Of a stretch of 64,000 nucleotides of DNA, positions 6,720 to 59,870 are shown one piece after another. Both the position numbers and the translations under genes were made by a program. The first letter of the stretch is position 1. The number at the start of each line of letters is the position of its first letter. The notes beneath the pieces were generated by a model. It saw nothing but the letters and a program-made list of their open reading frames with translations, searched no databases and was not told the origin of the DNA. This stretch comes from Hyalella azteca (lineage: Eukaryota > Arthropoda > Malacostraca > Amphipoda > Hyalellidae), in the NCBI RefSeq assembly GCF_000764305.2, contig NW_025935099.1, forward strand, positions 4,975 to 68,974, given 5' to 3'.

Positions 6720-6880
6720 CTCGAATCGAAGATGCAACACGTATGCCTCACGTAAGTTCCAGTCTCGAATCTAAGATACAAGACGAATGCCTCATGTAAG
6801 TTCCAGTCTCGAATCTAAGATACATCACGCATGCCTCATGTAAGGTCCAGTCTCGAATCTAAGATACAACATGCATTTCC
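6720..6880. repeat. 44-bp minisatellite (copy 1 of family)
   Basis: Four units of 44 bp beginning ttccagtctcgaatc. The same unit recurs at 8930-9065, and the flank (tcagcgcc ... gtcaatcatt) is also shared, so the array travels with a larger dispersed repeat. Confidence 0.8.
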
Positions 6881-6899
6881 AACGTAAGTTCCCTAAGCA

Positions 6900-7870
6900 C
6901 TTCGACGATCCATGCATACTTAGTATCCTTGGTATTTGTTTCGGACGTAGTAGTCCCAGGCCACGATGGATCGCCGCGTCTGAAAATCGCGCATCCGCCC
7001 TCATTTGGGCCACCTGATGCACGATGCTGTTGCTTGCTTGTCGCCGATAGTATTTTTGCAGGGGAAGTCGATCAGGGATTGTGCCCAGGAACACGTCCAG
7101 TCGTCTCTTGAAGGTCTGCAGGGTGAACTCCCCCTCTCTTTGATCCGTTTGTAGCACGTTGAACAGCCTCGGCCCTGCCATAGAAAATGATCCTTCCCGC
7201 AGGGATTGAAATCTGACTGCAGATCTGTTACGTAGTGTGGGGATCTTGCACAGTCTCCTTCTCTCGTTATGAAATGTCTCAATCCTGAAGGTCTCGCTCT
7301 CGAAGTTTGGTGCTGTTCCGGTTATCATTTTCCTTGTATACAGAATGACATACCTCTCCCGTTTCCTCTGCAGTGAGTATAGACCCCGGCGCTTCAACTT
7401 CTCCCAGTAGTTCAACTCTTCCATCATTCTGATCCAGGAAGTGATAGTTCGCTGGACACCTTCAAGTTGCCGCACTGCGCCGAGTGCGAACATGGTCCAG
7501 AGCTGGCAGCAGTAATCAAGAATTGGTATTACAAGAGCTCTAAAAAGTGTGATGTGATCATCGGTTCCGCTTCTCTTGTTTTCAACGTCTGCCAGATCCA
7601 CCCCATCTGTCGCCTATCTCTTGCGGTTATTGCCGTTATGTGACCACCAAACTTGACCTGAGTATTCATTAACACAACACTCCTAGATCGCGAACGAGCC
7701 GCTTCTCTTCGATTTCCGAGTTGTCAGGTGCTAGGTAGCGGTGTTCCATACCAGCTCTTCCGCTACCTCTGTATCTAAGAACCTCAAACTTGGTCCCGTT
7801 GAACTGCATGTTGTGCACTTAATCCAATCATATATTGCAGAGAGGTCTCCTGTAACCTCTCGCAATTGGG
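6900..7870 (-). pseudogene. LINE reverse transcriptase C-terminal fragment
   Basis: Minus-strand translation gives the C-terminal part of a jockey/CR1-type non-LTR retrotransposon polymerase: MQFNGTKFEVLRYRG, then RLVRDLGV, then RALVIPILDYCCQLW, then the family's usual tail (RLDVFLGTIPDRLP). The open stretch 6825-7601 carries 258 residues, and the more N-terminal part is in other frames or behind stops. The palm-domain catalytic YADD would lie upstream and is not visible, so the copy is 5'-truncated and inactive. Confidence 0.85.
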
Positions 7871-8227
7871 CCGAGTACTGAGATGAGATGCTGTGTCGTT
7901 CATGTGCGTAATTGTGCCAAACAGTCCAGAGAATGTCCTCTCGGCTCTATTACGCCTACGCGTCCTACTCATAGTCGTTGGCTTCAACGTAGTCGATGAA
8001 ACTTCGATGAACGTAGTCGATGAAACGGCAACTACCGTGTGTTGATGCAGTCGCTTCTGGCCAAGAACGATGCCCGTTCGAGTACGATGTCCGAGTACGA
8101 TCGCGATCATGCCGCGTATATGAAACTATAGCTAGATTCAACTAGCATTTCTGGAGAAGTATGATAAATTTATTTGAGAAGTAATACATGGAGAAGTATA
8201 ACACAAATTTATTGCATTTTGCTGCAG

Positions 8228-8381
8228 GTCGCCACTCGGAGATGGACATAGGCACCGGCGTCCTGTGGACATGGACGCTGTGGGCTGCTACGATGGTGGT
8301 GGAGGAGAAAAATGAAGTCAAGTTTTGGATCCTCGTTTTATTCACTGTCACTCTTCTGGCACTTCTCTACTTTATTAGCAG
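8228..8381 (+). CDS. orphan exon with a transmembrane segment
   Basis: The stretch is bounded by a good acceptor (tttgctgcag) and donor (AGCAG|GTAAAA). It is open throughout and encodes an acidic-basic stretch followed by a hydrophobic helix, FWILVLFTVTLLALLYF, just before the donor. A methionine lies near the start of the exon, so it could be the first coding exon of a small membrane protein. I do not recognise the family and found no partner exon nearby. Confidence 0.35.
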
Positions 8382-8929
8382 GTAAAAGCCGTGCAGATAC
8401 AGTTAAGAACCTGCAGGTGCTAGTAAGAATCACGCATGTTTGAATAATTTGATGATGCTCTTTTTTGCTCTATATTTACTTTAATTTCACTTCTGCATCG
8501 GTACTTTGCTTCTATTTTGTCAGGTTGAATAGGCAAGAGTGATCTGTAAAGGCTTGCAAACAGGTTCAGAATTTATTTACTGTGCAGGGTTTAACAGTAG
8601 AAGGTACATTGAAACACAGGGGAGATTGATAACACTAATTATTTGACAATATTGCTCAGACAACACCGATACAAGATTATTCACTAGTCTCATCTTAACA
8701 CAGGATGCGCACCGTTCCCTGCATAAGAAACGCCCTGTACACAGTTAAAAAATCAGCTCATAGAATTTTTTTTATTTTTAACAGAGTAGCTCCTCTTAAA
8801 ATGTAAATGATTTGAACGTCTAACATTTTCAGGAACAAAAAATGTTGGGTTTCAATCAATAACAATGTTCTGGCTCGCAATGGCTGCTTTTATCAGCGCC
8901 GCATGTCAATCATTCAAGTTAACGCATAC

Positions 8930-16570: not shown

Positions 16571-18108
16571 ATCATCATCTAGACAGTAAACGAAGGTGCT
16601 AAGCTTTGAATATCATTTAAATCATGAATCAGTCAACAAAATTGTTGATTTGGCATCTACTGTATTTTGTTCGGTTATCAGAAGGAATTTGAGTTGCCAA
16701 AACTCAGCAAGTGGAACACTCATTTTTTATACAAAAAGTTTGTTAGAATATATAATCGCAATCAAATCAAATAAATGAATTTAAGTGAGGTCATATCAAC
16801 TATGCAAAAAATTTACGAGGCCTCAAGGCCAAATTTAGAATAGGTTCCAGGAGAGTCGACGGGCGGGTGATTGTTCTGGTCTTTGTATTAATTAAGTAAT
16901 CGCTTCCGGCTTAGTAATGTTGCGGTGATAACGCCTGCCATGACCACGTTTCTACCTGCTTCACGCTATAATGTAATCAACTTTGTAGTTTTGAACTTTT
17001 TTTATGTCACTCGGCTGAGAAGCAACAGATGATATTTAAAATAAGTTTCAAATCGAGCAAGATTTTGTTTTTAGAGAACACAGGCCATAAAAGACTGGAA
17101 ATATGAGGCGAAACATATATGAACAACGAAATATTATGAAATAATAATATTATTAATACTACTTCTCCTATGACTATTGTCAGCACTAGAAATCTTCATT
17201 GTAGATCTCACCTTATCAGATACTGGGAGATGGGCAACACAGCTTCCTCTACCGCCCCAGCGCCCCTTACCGCCACAGCTGGCGATCTGCCAGGAGCGAC
17301 AGCATCGGTTTACCGCGTTGTTGCGTGCAACCTGTACCTGAGCCCCAAGATCATGCGTTTCGTCCTCAGCAAGGAATGCCAGGCCAAGCGAGACCATGAG
17401 ACCTACAGGCAGTACGTGGATCGCCTGAGGACAGAGGCAAATGAGTCACCAATCACGAACAATGAATGGAAAAAGGCACTAGGATCCTCATCAAAGGATG
17501 TTGACAAGTTAACTAATATCGAGGGGCAAGACGTAACAGGCATCTTCAGTCTGCTCAGCTACATGCTCACCACTGTTCACAAAAAGGACTCGCGGGATTG
17601 TGGCGGACTGCTCGAGAAGTTGAAGAGGGTCAAGAAGTTTCGAAATGAGGCCTTCCACAACTTCAATGCCGTCCACAACGAGCAAACCCTAATTAATCTT
17701 ATAGCAGCGCTGAATGATCTGATTGATGAAACCGGGAGATTCTACGCTCTTTCCCGGAAAGAGATCGATGATATTAAATACGAATTAGAGCAAGACGTAT
17801 CTACCTTGCAAGAGCTGAACCAGAAGAGCATTTACTATTGGTGTTGTAGCGTAGGCTGATGATGAACGGCAAACAGGAGGTGAAACATCTTTGGAAGGCC
17901 AGGCTATCCAGTGAGGCGCTCAGTATAGGCAATGAAATAATACACGTCAAGCGTCGAGACGTATTCCACGCATCAGAGGTAAAGAAGAGGGCAGACAGTA
18001 GTGGAGAGGGCTTTTCTTACACTGAAATTTTCAATGGACGTGAGAAGATTATCTTGGTAACGGGAGTTGCCGGAGCCGGTAAAACAACCCTCGTCAAAAA
18101 CATCGTAC
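16427..18108. repeat. tandem duplication, copy 1
   Basis: This block (SINE 3' part, upstream region, 5' part of the HEPN-NACHT gene) is repeated at 18109-19785 with an offset of 1,682 bases and only scattered substitutions. The junction at 18108/18109 joins the middle of the NACHT coding sequence to the middle of the SINE through a shared 'cgg'. After about 17848 the offset drops to 1,677 because this copy has five extra bases. Confidence 0.95.
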
Positions 18109-18113: not shown

Positions 18114-19785
18114 GGAGGTCGGGCGGTTAGTCACAGCAAAATTGGAGCAGTGCTCGAGACTGCAACAAGCTGGGAATTTTCTGTGATATTAAAAAAAATC
18201 AGGGACAAGCCTACAGCCCAATAAACGTTTAAACCACTATTATTACTATCTCATCATCATCTAGACTGTAAACGAAGCTGCTAAGCTTTGAATATCATTT
18301 AAATCATGAATCAGTCAACAAAATTGTTGATTTGGCATCTACTGTATTTTGTTCGGTTATCAGAAGGAATTTGAGTTGCCAAAACTCAGCAAGTGGAACA
18401 CTCATTTTTTATACAAAAAGTTTGTTAGAATATAAAATCGCAATCAAATCAAATAAATGAATTTAAGTGAGGTCATATCAACTATACAAAAAATTTACGA
18501 GGCCTCAAGGCAAAATTTAGAATAAGTTCCAGGAGAGTCGACGGGCGGGTGATTGTTCTGGTCTTTGTATTAATTAAGTAATCGCTTCCGGCTTAGTAAT
18601 GTTGCGGTGATAACGCCTGCCATGACCACGTTTCTACCTGCTTCACGCTATAATGTAATCAACTTTGTAGTTTTGAACTTTTTTTATGTCACTCGGCTGA
18701 GAAGCAACAGATGATATTTAAAATAAGTTTCAAATCGAGCAAGATTTTGTTTTTAGAGAACACAGGCCATAAAAGACTGGAAATATGAGGCGAAACATAT
18801 ATGAACAACGAAATATTATGAAATAATAATATTATTAATACTACTTCTCCTATGACTATTGTCAGCACTAGAAATCTTCATTGTAGATCTCACCTTATCA
18901 GATACTGGGAGATGGGCAACACAGCTTCCTCTACCGCCCCAGCGCCCCTTACCGCCACAGCTGTCGATCTGCCAGGAGCGACAGCATCGGTTTACCGCGT
19001 TGTTGCGTGCAACCTGTACCTGAGCCCCAAGATCATGCGTTTCGTCCTCAGCAAGGAATGCCAGGCCAAGCGAGACCATGAGACCTACAGGCAGTACGTG
19101 GATCGCCTGAGGACAGAGGCAAATGAGTCACCAATCACGAACAATGAATGGAAAAAGGCACTAGGATCCTCATCAAAGGATGTTGACAAGTTAACTAATA
19201 TCGAGGGGCAAGACGTAACAGGCATCTTCAGTCTGCTCAGCTACATGCTCACCACTGTTCACAAAAAGGACTCGCGGGATTGTGGCGGACTGCTCGAGAA
19301 GTTGAAGAGGGTCAAGAAGTTTCGAAATGAGGCCTTCCACAACTTCAATGCCGTCCACAACGAGCAAACCCTAATTAATCTTATAGCAGCGCTGAATGAT
19401 CTGATTGATGAAACCGGGAGATTCTACGCTCTTTCCCGGAAAGAGATCGATGATATTAAACACGAATTAGAGCAAGACGTATCTACCTTGCAAGAGCTGA
19501 ACCAGAAGAGCATTTACTATTGGTGTTGTAGGCTGATGATGAACGGCAAACAGGAGGTGAAACATCTTTGGAAGGCCAGGCTATCCAGTGAGGTGCTCAG
19601 TATAGGCAATGAAATAATACACGTCAAGCGTCGAGACGTATTCCACGCATCAGAGGTAAAGAAGAGGGCAGACAGTAGTGGAGAGGGCTTTTCTTACACT
19701 GAAATTTTCAATGGACGTGAGAAGATTATCTTGGTAACGGGAGTTGCCGGAGCCGGTAAAACAACCCTCGTCAAAAACATCGTAC
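18109..19785. repeat. tandem duplication, copy 2
   Basis: Second copy of the 1.68-kb unit. It continues without interruption into the intact gene, so this is likely the ancestral arrangement at the 3' side. Confidence 0.95.
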
Positions 19786-20780
19786 TGCAATTCTTCGACC
19801 CGCAACAGGGGACTGCCGATTACTTGAGCTCCTTTAACCAACTCGTCTTCTTCGAGTGCAGAGATCGCAACACTGAAAAATTGAGCGATGTCATCGATAA
19901 ACACTACGAAGGCCTTTGTAGTGAACTAGGGAATGAAAATGTCTTCAAGGCTCTTATGCGTACCGATGTCTTATTCATCATCGATGGCTTCGATGAAGTC
20001 AACGAATTTTCCATGAAAGTCGTGACCGAGATTATTAAAACGACGTGGCGCCCTAACTGTCATGTGTTGATCACGACTCGTCCTCATGCCGTGAAGGAGA
20101 AGCTGGCACCGCTGTTGTGCCACAATGATGTCAGCTCTGCTCAGTACGAGATCCTGCCGCTCACGAAGCTTGCCGATCAACTTGAATTCCTGAGGCGGTA
20201 TGAAGAGTCTTTGAGTGATGGCACTTCGACTGAAGAGATGACGAAGAGCTTCGAGTCGCTCAGCGAAGATGTCAGAAATCAATTCACTGAACCTATTAGC
20301 TTGGTTCATTTTTGTGAGATTCATAAGCATTTCCCTGAAGCGATATCCTCGTGGCAGACGCCCGGAAACGTGGCGCCATCCATTCTTCGCTTGTATAAAA
20401 ATCGCATCCTGTCGAAATTGGCGGATTCGAGCTGCAGCGCAACTGACGTCTTGGTTGCCGACGTGTTTGATGTAATCGGTCGTGAGGCGCTGGATTTGCT
20501 GCGTGACAACAGCGTAACATTGTCAGGAGAAGAGCTCCTTGGATTGAAACAAAAGTGCCAGAAAATAATAGATGCTACTGGGAAATTCGACTCGAAAATT
20601 GTTCTTTCAGTCTTACTCAAGGAGCAAAAGCCACTAAATAAAGGAGAGTGCATGAGCTATGCCTTCCCGCACAAGACTGTGCAAGAGATCGTCGCTGCAG
20701 ACCACGTCGTGCACCGCATCCTAGCCAGCAACGACTCCCTCGACTGCATCCTGGGGGCCACGGCAGAGGAAATACCACGG
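18912..20780 (+). CDS. HEPN-NACHT NLR-like protein, first coding exon
   Basis: The open frame starts upstream at 18852, but the ATG at 18912 gives MGNTASST, a plausible N-myristoylation start, and is preferred. Numbering from 18852: residues about 50-220 resemble the DZIP3-type HEPN fold, with the R-X4-H motif RNEAFH at 158-163. A NACHT ATPase follows with Walker A GVAGAGKTT (297-305), Walker B LFIIDGFDE (374-382), a sensor-like HVLITTR (404-410) and a winged-helix FPHKTVQEIVAA (605-616). Such STAND proteins act as intracellular sensors that oligomerise on nucleotide exchange, and HEPN domains are often RNases; both roles are inferred from families. The exon ends at a donor (CCACG|GTAAGC) in phase 2 and joins 22907 in frame. 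A near-identical truncated copy lies immediately upstream. Confidence 0.88.
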
Positions 20781-22090
20781 TAAGCATCTGTCGTTTTTAT
20801 GTTGTTTTTATTGTTCAATCTAGTGCCTTTTTCTATTTATACGTTAATTTTCATTTCCTTTATTTGACTCATATAATATATCAGGTCACCAATTAAATAT
20901 TCAAGTATGGAACAAAACTGATGGAATTTTACTTCTTTCCAATAAGCGATCAAGGCACCTCGGAGGCCATGTTTCAAAAAGTCCTCGTATGTAATTGATG
21001 CAGAACTGTAATTGTTGGACACCAAAATGCGACTATAAGATGGATAGTCGCTCATTGATAACGACTCCACTTGCACCTGTAAATTTGATTGATGCACGGA
21101 AACGTTGAATAGGCAAAAATTCAACTTGAGGTATATAGCCTAGAGCTACAAGTCGTGTGAGTATGAACTCCCGACTTGATCTTTTTGCAACCTACGTTAA
21201 GAGCACTAATAAAAATAAGAAATTCTACGAATTAGCGGCATAATTGGGATTAAGGTAGGGATGGAAGTATTTTTAACAGGCGTTATCGATGTTTTACATT
21301 AGATACAAGGGTAAATAGTTAATGAGACTTGCATCGTAGCATTTTATGCGTGGTAAAACGAATAATACGACTTATATCGACACATTACATGTAAGGTATC
21401 ATGGTTAATTAAATTTAGATTGTCATGGTAGCCTAGAACATAAATACGGACTCTTACCTTCTGCTAAAGCTAAAGCTATATTTAGGGTTATAGTTAAGAG
21501 AGAAGGCCAAGCAGCAAACCAGCAATGAGGGGTCATTACATTAATGACAGGGTCATTACTCGGCCCTGCATGATGCAGGACTCACATGCTCCCAATGTAA
21601 TAAACCACTCACCCGAGAGAGGTTCACTATGTCGGCATATTCTATCATCAACATACCACATTCCACTGGGTTTTCTCATCGTCACTAATTGGTCTGTACC
21701 ATATTCAGAATTACCAGGCCCCAACTATGTACCATGCCCCTATTCTTCACTATCTAAATAAATGGTCTATGTATATATAGAAGACTAAATTTCTTATTCG
21801 TAACCGGACGATTGTATTTTCTTAGCACTTCTATATAGCTGCTTCTAACCTCATCGTTCTCCGTACTGACCACTTCACTGGCTTAGTTTTATAAATATTC
21901 TCACACGACGTAGTTGCCTTTGGCACGAGTAAGATTTTCTCTTATCTTCATAAATGAAGATCATCAGAGAACTGGACTGCATTTCATTTTCACTCCGGAT
22001 AAATTCAACAAACTCAAATCTGTTTATTAGCTTTGCCGCCCACGCCAAGCTTCTACTGTTCATAATTTTTCGGAACTGCATCAATGAAGA
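20781..22090. other. intron of the HEPN-NACHT gene
   Basis: Between the donor at 20781 and the acceptor at 22905 I see no further exon in this part. ORFs here are short and unconvincing. Confidence 0.5.
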
Positions 22091-54020: not shown

Positions 54021-57000
54021 TCATACATTTTGATATTCCGCTTCATACACTTTCTTCAATTTTACTTTTTGCTGGACAGATAGCGCCTTTTAAACAGCGC
54101 TAGGCAGTGTTGATTGCAATTCTGAAATTCTTTCGTAAACTTTTTTCATTTAGTTTCTAAGTATCAACATCCGCACTATCGAGAAAATCATAGCAATAGC
54201 CGTCACAATAATGACTAAATGCAGAACAAGCGGATGGCGCTCGACTTAATGAGTAAATGTTGTTAAAATATATATTCCTTTCTTATTCGTCGGTCGACCC
54301 TGGATTACTTCAACGCGATGCCAAGCTGTAACAAATTCGGACATTGACTTCTTGTAATGGAGTTTGCATTCCCACACTCCTGCGTCACTTAACATAGCTG
54401 AAGTGATGACCATGGAATCTTCTGTTCTTATGTCTACATTTGGAATAGTTTAGTGGATCTTGCCATCGTGATACCATTCCATGACCAGGTCATATTCTTA
54501 GAAAAGTTCAAGACCAGAACTGCCACATCGCAAAGAAAAAGTCTCGCCTTCATGGACAACCAAGGTGTTTTTCGGGGTCTCTACCGTTACACCTATGATG
54601 AGAAGAATTTAGTCTATTCCCGAGGTAAGCGTTACTAAGAATGACCACACTCCGGAATGCCGTGGAGCGCTATCATAAATGAACAAGTCGTCGTCCCGAA
54701 CTTCTACGTTCAACAGATTGGGTGCAGGTGACATCAAGGAATAAACTGACACAGGAGGTGCAACGTGCTTCGAGTTGTTTGAAGTTATCTTGAAACTATT
54801 GAACAACCATGAAAATTAGGCTTATTTATCAGATTATTTGATTTCGTAGTAAGTTTTCATTTTTACTGACAGCATACGAGTTTCACCTGCCGAAAGTCGG
54901 ACCGAATAATTAACATACAAAATTTGTCGCTTGATTTGCTTAATGATTTCAGAACCTAAAGAGCCACATGGATGCAAATTGCAAGTCCTGGATTCTCGCT
55001 GATTGCCCCCACAGGGTATGCCGTACATGGAAGGTGGGGGGTTTTGGCAAAGACGAACTCTGTGGCCCCATCCTCCTCCGCATGAAGCGTTGCAGCTCCA
55101 AGGTGACCACGAAGACCAACCTCCCCGTCGAGGAGCGTTGAACATGTCAGGAGGTATATTTTTACACGTTGAGACTACCAAGCCTTTATCTTACTATGAA
55201 AATGTCAAGAAATTAGCCTGTAGTTCGGGCATTTTTATGTAGCCATTTAAAACAGCGATTAAACTAGAGGCAGTTCGGTTTATTTGTACATGAAGATCTT
55301 TCCTCGTCTAGTGAAGAAACCAGTCACGATTGCGATCCTCGGCGGGGGTTTTATATGATAAAAATTGCAATCTTGCTGGATGTACAATAATTGAAGCCAC
55401 TTTTTCCAAATTGTATAAAAAATCGATTGTAAAGCCATAAGAGTCTGATGGAGAGTGTTTAAATACGTAGAAATCATTTTTCGATTGAATTTTATAGTAC
55501 ATCACTTCGTTTTTTAGCGGATTGTTCACGCTCTTCTGCGCTTCGAACACTAAACATTTTTAATCGTGTTTGGAGGGTGCAGGAAAATTAATTATTGCAA
55601 ACTTATTATGTGCCTTAGGATATGGGTAGAGACAGGGCTAAATTTATACGTACTTGAGGGTGTCGGTCATAGGACTGAGTCTGTTCTGGAAGTTTGGTGA
55701 CAGATTTCCTTCCTCGAACAACTACCAACTTGTGTCAGTCCTTACAAGCTCAAATCTTTTGTAATACGATGCGTGCAAGAGATTCGGAGTCATAAAAACT
55801 GATTTCGGGATTCTGTCAGTGAAATTCATTATTGCAGATTCTTCTTCTCCAAGCTAAAACTTGATTTTACTGCCATATTGTCCAGTCAACGTGAGACACA
55901 TTTTTATTTTGGGGCCTTGATAATTTGAAAGACGAATTCCAAACTTCAAAGTGTGCTTCTCTGTATTCGGTACGAAGTAAATTTTTTGCATATCAGGTTG
56001 CCTCTCGTAAGAAGCGTCTATGGGGAAAAGAATAAATTTGTAACCTACTTCATCATTGCATAAGCGTTCCACCTGCTCTACCTAGTCAGCTGTTTCAAGG
56101 CATGACGACTTGCATGTCGAGATCATTTCATCGCAAAAATCTTTTGCTCCAAACAGGTCAACGTAACACCAAGGCTTATGAGGATTAACCTTGATGGAAG
56201 TCAATACATCGTAGTTGATGTTCCGACAAGTCGTCTGATCATCCGAAGATGTGTACGAAAACGTTCTAGATTCAGGGAGCATCGAAGCGCGTTTAATGGA
56301 TTCGAAATCTTTGTTCCTCGTAAATTCTTGGAAAGAATTAGGAATTACCACGTTTTCATGGTAGCGCATTGATGTGATTGTCCAGCTGAGGCAGGGCCGC
56401 CCAGAGTTTGTAAAAAATACAGAGCCCTTGTAGGCTTCATCTAACGTGGTGCAGAGGGGACGTTGATCGTATGAACTGCGAGAAGGCTCACAACCTTCAC
56501 CCAATATTTTGAATGTAAGAGGTGTCTTAGAGTGGATCGGCTCTGGATGATAAGGCATTAGTTGCCAGAAACGACCATAGATTCCACGATATGAAGATAT
56601 CGTTTATTATTTTGCTACCTAAATGTGAAGAAACCTTTCAGTATCCGAAATTTTAATTTCCAGTTTGATTTGAACTGGTCTATCTAAGTCAAATGAGTTC
56701 ACTTGGATATGTTTTTCAACAACATTTTCACACTCTGGTACGCCATCCAAGTTAATAACTATCAATTTCTGACACAGAATGACGGTGGTAACTTTCTTCG
56801 TTACTCCCACGAATACCCCTCTTACAGGGTAGTCGAGTTTCCAACCTCTCGGCTCATAGAAAAGAAAATCGTAAACGTAAAGAGCCGCACTCGCTGGGTA
56901 AACTTCTAAATGTAAAGTGCGGTCGTTAGCACCTGGTAAAAGTTCAAGTTTGGGAGGAACTCCTCCTGGTGTAAATGGAAGATCATCTTCTGCTAAGCTA

Positions 57001-58271
57001 GCATGGAATCTCATGTACTGCCAGATATTCGTTAAGGGCATAACATAATGAATTTGCCTGTAGTTGACGCCATCAAACGGGTAGGGTATGTAACCTTGAA
57101 GGCAGTTCTACCATTCTTGGTTGATTCGTTTCAGGGCGAACAACAATGATGATCGTGTATAAGGAGTTTGAGTTATTGTGAAAAATTTAAACTTTTCCCA
57201 GGGATCTACATCATAACTATTGAGCGATAGAAGAGAATATTCAGATCCCTCGTAAGACATTTTAAACTTTGTTGTCTTTTTTGTTTTTTGAATTTGTATG
57301 TTAAAATGCATCCACTGATACGACATGGAAGTCGGATCGAAGTTTTTTGCTGATGAAGATCGCTCAGCTCTTGGGGTCTCATCACGCGCGACATATTTTT
57401 CACGCACTACTGAAAGATCTGATCCTTTGAAGGAAATTGTAAGTTTGGCAGTTTGTGCTGCGTCGTGGGACAAGGTCAACTTCAGCTGGAAGCTGGTCAA
57501 GTCAGCTGCGTCCGCAAGTCTCATGGCGAAGGATATGTTCAATTCGTCGCCGTAGGGAGGAATGAAGTAGGCCGTTGGAAGCACATTATTTTATCGATAA
57601 ATAAATTATGTAATCGGCGTGACTACAATCTGTTTATCTATTCCTTCAATCACTTGTGGTAACTCCAGCCCAGCTCGAAGCGGTAAATCGCAAGGGATTT
57701 ATTAGTTGTCTATGGTCATGCAGCTAAATCGATTCCAGCGGTTGCGTCTCACGCAAGAACTTGAGCAGTCGTCTTGTTTTAAAAAGGTCACATTACCTTG
57801 CATCTCTTCGCCAACAAAAGAAGAAGTGCTTCGGTAAACGCTTCTGCAATACTTTATCGCACAAGACTCCAGCACGGCTTTTCCCTCTTGCATTCGAAAG
57901 CACGAGGGCTCGTCGAAAAAATTCTCTTAATTCTGGCACTCAGTCGAATTTTCGAAGCGTTAACCTTAATATTTTGGATCGTCCAAGAACGAATATTTTT
58001 AGGAAGGCTGAATTCTAGACGGTACATGGGACCATTAAACGCATTTATGGCCGTGCTTTGTGATGCTTTTTCCCCCGCGGTATTCAACTCCCGCACGCGT
58101 CAGCAAACACGGAGCTTGAAAAGCCGGGAGCCCTGGAACCGCGTCCAGACTTGGTATGGAAAACCACCCCACACTGAAGGCCTTGCTATGCGCCGCCAGC
58201 GCTGCCGTGCATTGCCATGCGAATATCACACTAAGGGCATGCGATGCCAAGCAACGATGACGGAGTTACAT
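54021..58271 (-). CDS. kringle/TSP1/Ig type I membrane protein with 32 in-frame TAA/TAG codons
   Basis: One frame runs from ATG at 58271 to TGA at 54021-54023 with no frameshift: 1,416 codons, 24 TAA, 8 TAG, no internal TGA. With TAA/TAG as Gln the protein has a signal peptide (RHRC-rich start, hydrophobic core, ALA-AHS cleavage site). Kringle 1 is at about 55-142 (YRGGKSITKHGHKCVQW, where Q is TAA). A long beta-rich region follows at 145-600, then kringle 2 at about 607-721 (YKGSVFFTNSGRPCLSW, KPWCYVDLFGAKDFC). Next come a TSP1 repeat 1051-1102 (GGWSSWSPWSCNASCGGGW), an Ig domain about 1228-1320 (C1249, W1266, D1296-A-G-V-W-E-C1302), a transmembrane helix 1347-1371 and a 44-residue helical tail ending EAEYQNV. 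It is intronless, unlike RALGAPA. Arg CGN and ordinary CAA/CAG codons are used too. It is probably a cell-surface adhesion or receptor protein (inference). Under the standard code it would be a pseudogene, but its clean frame argues against decay. Confidence 0.85.
54966..55121 (-). other. thrombospondin type 1 repeat
   Basis: WSSWSPWSCNASCGGGWGHR, then RVRLCQNPPPSMYGIPC and CNLHPC: the layered Trp and six Cys expected of a TSP1 repeat. No stop codon falls within this domain. Confidence 0.9.
57888..58109 (-). other. first kringle domain (needs TAA read as sense)
   Basis: Cys at 55 opens the domain. YRG, the internal CVQW and the closing Cys pattern (ECQNQENFFDEPSCF ... LESCAIKYC) follow kringle spacing. 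Five TAA codons lie inside it, one two residues after the conserved Cys and immediately before the conserved Trp. Confidence 0.75.
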
Positions 58272-59870
58272 CAGGCTCGTGTTTCTTGAGACTTGAATTT
58301 CAGGCGAGAGGACGAGCAGTTTTTGATCAAGGACGGAAACATGGAAATAACTGAAACATATTGCCGCCCTGTTAGTATCATTGATACAATTTCTAATATA
58401 GGTTGGATTACTGCTGAAGTTTTTGGGTGAATAATTTTACAGCGTGCTGGCGGTCCAGTGCTACGCACACCACATTTTACATAAAGATTTTTTTCTAAAC
58501 ATAAATGCGTATGTTTCTTTTGCCCGCTATTTTCGTAATGCTCTCGTAATACCAGTTAAATATTATCTCTTTGTTTTACATCTCTGAAAAATAATATGCA
58601 CAATAAAATTACATATGAGGATAAATTAGCCGTGATTTTCGAAGCCTCGTGTTAAAACTACTTAACATGCTTGATTGATGGAAAACTAGAAATTTCTGCT
58701 AAAATTTGCTAACAAATCGAAAAAGCTTAAAATTTGTTGCGGTAAACAAATAAAGGTTTTTGATTATTATGATCTTGAGACCCGAATAATGAATCTGACT
58801 CATTTCAACATAATTAATTTCGAAATTTATTGAAAAGCCTCGATCGAGAAACTCAATTTGACCGTTAATCTGTTTATAAATGTGAGTGTATACATTATTT
58901 AAGTGTATCAAACAATGTACAAGTATATTACACAAGTTTTTGTTTTACATTCGTTGAGACTGGGATAAGGCTCCTCAAAATCTAGTTTATAAAAATGAAT
59001 GATAGAAAATAAATTCTGCAGAAAATGGAACGATATTGATATCGAGAACTTTACTTCTTTGAAATAGTCGAAAAAGCTGCAATTTTACCCCAGAAATAAG
59101 TTCATAATGTACGCATTGCTTTAGTGGGAAAGTTAAAAACTCAGACCAAATAATTTTTTGGAAAATTCAAGTTAAAAAAATGCGAAGGTTTAGACAATAA
59201 TGCCAAATGCTGCAGAAACTATAATACAAGAAATAAGTTAAGTTCGTTTAATTAATGCGTAGTTGCGAATCAAATTATTATTGGAAACGACCGCAGAAGC
59301 AAGGAATCGTTAATTGTGCTTGTGCAATAATGTAGAATTGATGTGCTGGACGACACAGGAAATTATATTGTTAGAAAATGAAGAGATCTTTAACAAATGG
59401 TACTTTATTTCTAATGAGTTCATATTTTCGAGTCAGTCGCTTGTACGTATAATCGTCCAACTTTTGGCTAGGTTTGAATATCTACCGGGCTTATTATGTT
59501 GTTTTTTATTACTTACCTGGGATGATTAAATCTTAGTCTGATCCAGATAAGTGACCACGCAGAGCTGACTTCGTTTAAGCAATTTATGTATATTTGGCTT
59601 CTGCTTAAATGATATTAGCATGTAGCGTGTCTTGGCAAGCATAACATTTTCCTGGTAACATCAAAGCATCCATACCTGGATTGATATTTCTCTCAAATTC
59701 ATGAACCAGTTCACAACATCATAACTATTAGCACCTAAATAGTTTCTTTGCTATGGAGCATCGCTTAGGAATGTTGGCTGCAGCGTGCGACACCCATAGT
59801 ACCGCGCCACGGAGGTGTGGTTAAAGAAGATATCCTGCCTGCTGCACCCATGCAGCCTCACCCTCCAGCA
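58272..59870. other. upstream of the altered-code gene; nothing firm
   Basis: The same register stays free of TGA for at least 130 codons upstream of the chosen ATG, but translation there shows no domain and contains further TAA/TAG. I chose the ATG at 58271 because it gives a good signal peptide. No promoter element is recognised. Confidence 0.35.

What the first reader, a model, noticed from the sequence alone, without database searches (positions are those of the whole stretch)
54021..58271. Large open frame using TAA and TAG as sense codons, ending at TGA
Seen directly: 1,416 codons in one register, 32 TAA/TAG (24 TAA, 8 TAG), no TGA before the terminal one, no indel. Under neutral decay, mixed stops and frameshifts would be expected. 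If the three stops were equally likely, 32 with none TGA has odds of about (2/3)^32. Established: TAA/TAG = Gln with TGA = stop is the ciliate-type code (translation table 6), also found in some other protists. I know of no animal nuclear genome using it. Inference: the gene is translated with altered decoding.
Basis: partly seen in the sequence, partly recalled or inferred. Interest (0 to 1): 0.97.

Follow-up and report, generated by a model that had tools for sequence, protein, structure and literature searches.

The report
Second genetic code in an amphipod
A gene in a small crustacean appears to use two of the three stop signals as the amino acid glutamine, and the same genome carries tRNA genes and a spare, altered stop-reading protein of the kind such a second genetic code would need; if borne out, it would be a second nuclear genetic code inside an animal.

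Summary
In detail: on the MINUS strand, 58271-54021, one frame of 1,416 codons has 24 TAA + 8 TAG and ends at its only TGA. Read with TAA/TAG=Gln it looks like a type I membrane protein (kringle, TSP1, Ig, TM). The genome is Hyalella azteca. The same assembly holds fitting machinery: (1) tRNA genes with a tRNA-Gln body and anticodons TTA (reads UAA) and CTA (reads UAG), clustered on contig C4613; (2) a second, intronless, divergent eRF1 (C4694) with relatives in other amphipods. It keeps GGQ and NIKS, but 10 of 10 family members are changed at positions 122, 123, 124 and 126, the four whose joint mutation makes human eRF1 UGA-only (PMC4698671). Ordinary genes of this genome still stop at TAA/TAG: histones at TAA, canonical eRF1 at TAG. 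Best reading: a gene-restricted second nuclear code (UAA/UAG=Gln, UGA=stop) in an animal, probably confined to some cell type. Expression, tRNA charging and release were not tested, and no second such gene was found. Ten full-text searches of open-licence PMC papers listed no report of this.

The parts
54021..58271 (-). Intronless ORF, 1,416 codons, 24 TAA + 8 TAG in frame, ATG to TGA, read with TAA/TAG = Gln
58185..58271 (-). Putative signal peptide; codon 2 is TAA
   Evidence: read by eye in the translation; no program run
57846..58100 (-). Kringle 1 (contains 5 in-frame TAA)
   Evidence: PF00051, E 1.8e-7, 31.8 bits for the whole protein, below the curated cut-off 34.3; PDB matches HGF and ROR1/ROR2 kringles
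56349..56438 (-). First half of a probable kringle 2 (Pfam part only)
   Evidence: PF00051, residues 60-89 of piece 55824-56615, E 5.3e-4, 20.7 bits, below cut-off
54966..55115 (-). Thrombospondin type 1 domain
   Evidence: PF00090, 28.3 bits over cut-off 21.6; PDB thrombospondin-1, 6.6e-22
54348..54578 (-). Ig domain, contains 2 in-frame TAA
   Evidence: I-set and ig over their cut-offs, Ig_3 and Ig_2 just below, when the C-terminal piece is scanned; all below cut-off on the whole protein
54159..54230 (-). Putative transmembrane helix, followed by a short charged tail
   Evidence: read by eye; no program run
54021..54023 (-). TGA, the only TGA of the frame and the inferred true stop
58272..58799 (-). 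Upstream continuation of the TGA-free frame (9 further TAA/TAG); probably non-coding, not part of the gene

Best explanation
The ORF is a functional nuclear gene of the amphipod Hyalella azteca whose UAA and UAG codons are decoded as glutamine and whose UGA is the stop. Shown by sequence: the frame; tRNA genes with a tRNA-Gln body and anticodons TTA and CTA; a second eRF1, conserved in a family of ten, altered at stop-recognition positions; ordinary genes of the same genome ending in TAA or TAG. Inferred: GlnRS charges the two suppressor tRNAs; the second eRF1 has lost UAA/UAG and keeps UGA; in cells where it dominates over canonical eRF1 the suppressor tRNAs win at UAA/UAG and the full 1,416-residue membrane protein is made. 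In other cells translation from this ATG would stop at codon 2. The second code would then be confined to a cell type (gamete or gland is a guess) and act as a translational switch.
For: Frame statistics. Domains in order, running through the stops. TAA:TAG 24:8 beside CAA:CAG 31:15. Of 14 tRNA-Gln-like loci found with an ordinary tRNA-Gln query (a lower bound), 4 are TTG, 7 CTG, 1 TTA, 1 CTA, 1 TCA; the last three share one contig. ARAGORN calls all three as tRNAs. TTA and CTA are 67/72 alike, 52-56/72 to the ordinary ones, have the D-arm of the ordinary tRNA-Gln, complementary acceptor, anticodon and T stems (by eye) and a T-run just downstream. A search with that body gives 3 matches of 3 candidates, all on C4613, so no dispersed SINE. 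eRF1-2: intact 435 aa, intronless, 33-43% identical by domain to the canonical eRF1; keeps E55, NIKS, Y125, C127, F131, GGQ. In 10 of 10 family members T58 is K/R, T122 R, S123 F, L124 I/V/M, L126 D/N/H. Human eRF1 changed at 122/123/124/126 gives UAA 0, UAG 0, UGA 80 (PMC4698671, Table 1 passage). The residue at 126 tracks the code in ciliates (PMC4482090). Six histone frames with the usual C-terminus end at TAA, canonical eRF1 at TAG.
Against: No expression, peptide, charging or release data. No homologue of the gene was found, so conservation at the 32 sites is untested. No second such gene was found: of 9 kringle matches one has TAA inside, not in a long frame. That search did not list the window gene either, so it is a poor detector; a kinase scan did not complete. 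Codon-usage signal is weak. eRF1-2 is divergent throughout (N domain 41%), so change at four given positions in one sequence is unsurprising; the fixed pattern in 10 is stronger, but T122R also occurs in P0013, outside the family. Asp/Asn/His at 126 are not named in the text I read. Gln ranks 5th of 20 at the kringle sites. The minimum-energy fold of the CTA tRNA is not a cloverleaf, nor is that of the ordinary CTG one; the CTA gene has C at position 73 where the others have T. The TCA copy would read UGA; it is one base shorter and may be decaying.
Confidence: 0.85

Rival explanations
1. A decaying (processed) pseudogene that by luck kept its frame.
For: It is intronless and no second copy was found; it has many stops.
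Against: 0 of 600 neutral simulations without TGA (no indels simulated, which would only make it rarer); no frameshift over 4.25 kb; domains recognisable throughout; genes for cognate suppressor tRNAs exist.
Confidence: 0.03
2. RNA editing rather than tRNA decoding: e.g. A-to-I turning UAG into UGG (Trp), or U-to-C restoring CAA/CAG.
For: Fungal A-to-I editing of UAG/UAA is known (PMC11156358, search listing and start of abstract only).
Against: UAA would need two A-to-I edits; Trp scores 19th of 20 at the kringle sites and low in 3 of 4 Ig models; U-to-C editing on this scale in animals is unknown to me (recalled); the tRNAs and eRF1-2 make it unnecessary.
Confidence: 0.03
3. Serial leaky readthrough of UAA/UAG by ordinary tRNAs, without dedicated machinery.
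For: Abundant readthrough is reported in insects (PMC5100048, search listing and start of abstract).
Against: 32 stops in series at a few percent each would give essentially no product; UGA, the leakiest stop (recalled), is absent; dedicated anticodons exist.
Confidence: 0.02
4. The decoding is right but the second eRF1 has another job (decoy, quality control), and the suppressor tRNAs simply compete with canonical eRF1 in all cells.
For: Specificity of eRF1-2 was not assayed; it is divergent throughout.
Against: 32 competitive events would need near-complete suppression, which would also extend genes ending in UAA/UAG.
Confidence: 0.05
5. Contamination or lateral transfer from an organism with code 6, such as a ciliate symbiont.
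For: Code 6 is the ciliate code; symbionts of amphipods are plausible. The tRNA contig was not shown to be amphipod by any gene on it.
Against: Kringle-TSP1-Ig-TM architecture is animal-type (recalled); the window also carries a standard-code NACHT ORF and minisatellites, and C4613 has similar repeats; eRF1-2 is a Hyalella protein in NCBI with relatives in Trinorchestia and Hirondellea.
Confidence: 0.02

Closest known systems
Ciliate, dasycladacean and hexamitid nuclear code (NCBI table 6)
   Same: UAA and UAG read as Gln, UGA the stop; variant tRNAs and an eRF1 of narrowed specificity as the means (PMC4482090, section 3)
   Different: Here an animal; known in one gene; the ordinary code and canonical eRF1 persist in the same genome
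UGA-only human eRF1 mutant T122Q+S123F+L124M+L126F (PMC4698671; its table prints T112Q)
   Same: The same four positions are changed in 10 of 10 eRF1-2 sequences; S123F is identical in all ten
   Different: Natural paralogue, other residues at 122 and 126 (and mostly at 124); specificity not measured
Phages with TAG = Gln (code 15) in standard-code hosts (PMC9523058, search listing and start of abstract; suppressor tRNAs and late-gene use recalled)
   Same: Two codes at work in one cell, Gln suppressor tRNA, code used by a subset of genes
   Different: Nuclear animal gene; both UAA and UAG; own paralogous release factor
Programmed stop codon readthrough of arthropods (e.g. PMC5100048, search listing and start of abstract)
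   Same: In-frame stops translated
   Different: Typically one stop and a C-terminal extension, no dedicated tRNA (recalled); here 32 stops throughout the protein

Membership tests
Nuclear code with UAA/UAG = Gln (table 6) | TAA and TAG in frame in coding sequence, TGA only terminal | tested here: met
   24 TAA, 8 TAG, single terminal TGA; that it is expressed is not shown
Nuclear code with UAA/UAG = Gln (table 6) | tRNA-Gln genes with UUA and CUA anticodons | tested here: met
   C4613; charging not tested
Nuclear code with UAA/UAG = Gln (table 6) | eRF1 that does not recognise UAA/UAG | tested here: inconclusive
   Altered at the known positions in 10 of 10; activity not measurable here
Nuclear code with UAA/UAG = Gln (table 6) | Code used by the genes of the genome at large | tested here: not met
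   Six histone frames with the usual C-terminus (2 H3, 1 H4, 3 H2B) end at TAA; canonical eRF1 ends at TAG
Nuclear code with UAA/UAG = Gln (table 6) | Residue at the sites is Gln in homologues | tested here: inconclusive
   No homologue found; profile scoring: Gln 5th of 20 in the kringle, best of 10 in 3 of 4 Ig models
Class 1 release factor eRF1 (for the C4694 paralogue) | Three-domain eRF1, GGQ and NIKS | tested here: met
   4.7e-85 to an eRF1 chain of the PDB over residues 18-438; GGQ, NIKS kept
Class 1 release factor eRF1 (for the C4694 paralogue) | Peptide release at a stop codon | not testable with these tools
   Needs an in vitro release assay
Programmed stop codon readthrough | A single leaky stop with a C-terminal extension | tested here: not met
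   32 stops along the frame
Processed pseudogene | Mixed stops and frameshifts | tested here: not met
   No internal TGA, no frameshift

The most novel reading that the evidence does not exclude
Amphipods run two nuclear genetic codes in one genome. A dedicated paralogous eRF1 and two suppressor tRNA-Gln species switch a cell lineage to UAA/UAG = Gln, UGA = stop, and a set of genes, of which this is the first seen, can be expressed only there, their stop codons acting as an all-or-nothing translational lock elsewhere. The spread of the eRF1-2 family suggests that the switch is as old as the amphipods or older.
Probability: 0.6. Interest if true: 0.99.

Novelty: categorically new. Interest (0 to 1): 0.97.

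Why it matters
Stop-codon reassignment in a nucleus is so far known from protists and some algae (recalled; the searches listed nothing for animals). A second code in an animal that still uses the standard one would show how reassignment can begin: gene by gene, behind a paralogous release factor, without harm to the rest of the genome. It would make the long-debated intermediate state of code evolution open to experiment in a laboratory animal, and it would be a form of gene control in which a whole protein is locked by its own codons. Annotation pipelines would tend to discard such genes as pseudogenes. The parts (suppressor tRNA, altered eRF1) are of known kinds; two codes in one animal nucleus is not.

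Tried and rejected
Neutral decay, tested by simulation and rejected. Genome-wide code change, rejected by histone and eRF1 stops. SINE or tRNA-derived repeat as source of the suppressor tRNAs, rejected by copy number; a degenerate fourth relative (ARAGORN tRNA-Ile GAT) lies on the same contig. Trp by editing, disfavoured. Internal alignment of the two kringle halves to see what stands opposite the stops: score within the shuffled range (17.5; 100 shuffles, maximum 26.5), not used. Codon-usage scan: weak. Other TAA/TAG genes through the kringle family: none, but the search did not list the window gene either. A 551-codon TGA-free frame with 19 stops on C4613 read like non-coding sequence by eye. 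Protein homologues of the gene: none at E 0.001 in two searches. Rfam at gathering threshold and tRNA scan of the window: nothing. Paper searches: (10 of 10 used; open-licence PMC only); one search matched 635 papers of which 12 were listed, 79 of which 10, 38 of which 20; in what was listed, none reports an animal nuclear gene of this kind.
Full report
WHAT IS THERE. The open frame lies on the minus strand, from ATG at 58271 to TGA at 54023-54021: 1,416 codons, 24 TAA, 8 TAG, no internal TGA. A TGA-free frame runs further upstream to 58799, but that part looks non-coding. The other five frames of 58799-54021 hold 28-50 TGA each. The longest TGA-free run in 60 simulated windows was 583 codons, and in 176,480 held bases the runner-up among 8,339 runs was 681 codons, a NACHT ORF. 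Starting from the same ORF with CAA/CAG at the 32 sites, 0 of 600 neutral simulations reached 32 stops without TGA (substitutions only). A leave-one-out codon-usage scan was weak: the frame was best of six in 10 of 23 windows, with one tie.

WHAT IT ENCODES. Read with TAA/TAG = Gln the product has a signal-peptide-like start (by eye), kringle 1 (31.8 bits for the whole protein, cut-off 34.3), half of a second kringle (below cut-off), a TSP1 domain (28.3 bits, cut-off 21.6), an Ig domain (I-set and ig above cut-off when the C-terminal piece is scanned), a transmembrane-like stretch and a short tail. The domains run through the stops: five TAA lie in kringle 1, two in the Ig domain. TAA:TAG is 24:8 beside CAA:CAG 31:15, and Gln would make up 5.5% of residues. 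Putting each of 20 residues at the five kringle sites, Gln ranks 5th (P 33.5, K and A 31.1, H 30.4, Q 30.3 bits), Trp 19th, Cys 20th. At the two Ig sites, of 10 residues tried, Gln is best in 3 of 4 Ig models and third in the other; Trp is low in 3 of 4 and 7th of 10 in Ig_2. This fits Gln, does not prove it, and argues against Trp.

WHOSE GENOME. The assembly has 519 Mb in 4,890 contigs and the window lies on C1291. The eRF1 paralogue below is identical to an NCBI protein of Hyalella azteca whose contig length, 328,578, equals that of C4694. No second copy of the ORF was found: a DNA search with its middle returned only itself, and a protein search only itself plus four TSP1-region matches. 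Two searches of 5.8 billion proteins found no homologue at E 0.001.

THE tRNAs. TTA and CTA would read UAA and UAG. They are 67/72 alike and 52-56/72 like the ordinary ones, share the D-arm of the ordinary tRNA-Gln, have complementary acceptor, anticodon and T stems by eye, and are followed by a T-run. RNAfold gives a cloverleaf as minimum-energy fold for TTA, TCA and ordinary TTG, not for CTA nor for the ordinary CTG. CTA has C at position 73 where the others have T. A search with the TTA body returned 3 of 3 candidates, all on C4613, so they are not a dispersed SINE. The TCA copy is one base shorter and may be decaying; a fourth, degenerate relative is on the same contig.

THE RELEASE FACTOR. 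A search for the eRF1 N domain gave four matches: two exons that read as Pelota (by eye), an exon of canonical eRF1 (C1960) and an intronless ORF on C4694. Canonical eRF1 is spread over ten exons (boundaries by eye) with the usual motifs and ends in TAG. The C4694 protein (435 aa, ends in TGA) is a full eRF1 (4.7e-85 to a PDB eRF1 chain), 41, 43 and 33% identical to the canonical one in N, M and C domains. It keeps E55, NIKS, Y125, C127, F131 and GGQ, and is changed, in human numbering, at G31, M34, I35, F56, G57, T58, A59, T122, S123, L124, L126, D128, N129 and K130 among others. A protein search (41 hits at E 1e-20) found relatives in Trinorchestia longiramus (67%) and Hirondellea gigas (58%) and seven unnamed ones at 48-60% (P0004, P0006-P0011). 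In 10 of 10 of these sequences T58 is K/R, T122 is R, S123 is F, L124 is I/V/M and L126 is D/N/H; F131 is kept in 8 of 10. T122R occurs also in P0013, which groups with canonical-type eRF1. A tree of 17 rows splits the ten, together with the long-branched P0012, from six canonical-type rows with 100/100 support; the ten-row clade itself has 82/77.

WHY THESE POSITIONS MATTER. PMC4698671 (outline and passages read) gives for human eRF1 with the 122/123/124/126 quadruple change UAA 0, UAG 0, UGA 80, and for F131A 10, 7, 62 (percent of wild type). PMC4482090 (sections 3 and 10 and passages) reports that the residue at yeast 123 (human L126) is Leu in standard-code species and mostly Phe where UAA/UAG are Gln, and that several substitutions there give UGA specificity; Asp, Asn and His are not named in what I read. 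So a UGA-only eRF1-2 is a well-founded inference, not a result.

THE STANDARD CODE PERSISTS. Of 12 histone frames printed, the six with the usual C-terminus (2 H3, 1 H4, 3 H2B; C-termini recalled) end with TAA; the other six (5 TGA, 1 TAA; two pairs of overlapping loci) break off elsewhere and were not counted. Canonical eRF1 ends with TAG. The second code is therefore not genome-wide.

MECHANISM. Shown: gene, tRNA genes, paralogous eRF1, persistence of the standard code. Inferred: charging by GlnRS, UGA-only release, co-expression in a restricted cell type, and a lock elsewhere because codon 2 is TAA. Without restriction the tRNAs would extend the genes ending in UAA/UAG, which is why a cell-type limit is the likeliest arrangement.

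LIMITS. No expression data; no orthologue of the gene; one gene only; eRF1-2 specificity and tRNA charging untested. Nine kringle matches showed no second such gene, but that search did not list the window gene itself, so it says little; a wider family scan (PF00069) did not complete. Absence from print rests on 10 searches of an open-licence PMC library, of which the listed papers were seen.

Against the calls I mended: the simulation model's description, the Ig ranking of Trp, the CTA fold, the L124 column, the T122R row outside the family, the failure of the kringle search to list the window gene, the histone rows not counted, and the paper listings seen in part.

Noticed in passing
G000:C4613:82826-82896 (L032): A third suppressor-like tRNA-Gln copy with anticodon TCA (would read UGA), one base shorter than its sisters: opal suppressor or decaying copy.
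   Followed up: partly
window 17140-17859 and 18822-20783, + strand: A NACHT-domain ORF (653 aa, standard code) with a nearly identical duplicate of its N-terminal part about 1.7 kb upstream, within direct repeats.
   Followed up: partly
window 6825-8429, - strand: A LINE-like reverse-transcriptase remnant (label recalled, no family search run).
   Followed up: no
window 2478-47354: Many minisatellite arrays of different periods (7 to 107 bases; 39 overlapping rows).
   Followed up: no
L043 (C378), L045 (C1636): Standard-code frames with a kringle followed by a stretch of unknown family; possible architectural relatives of the window gene (by eye).
   Followed up: partly
P0010, P0011: Two unnamed eRF1-2 relatives have V or I at F131, a position whose Ala change also makes human eRF1 prefer UGA; perhaps crustaceans outside the amphipods (guess).
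   Followed up: no
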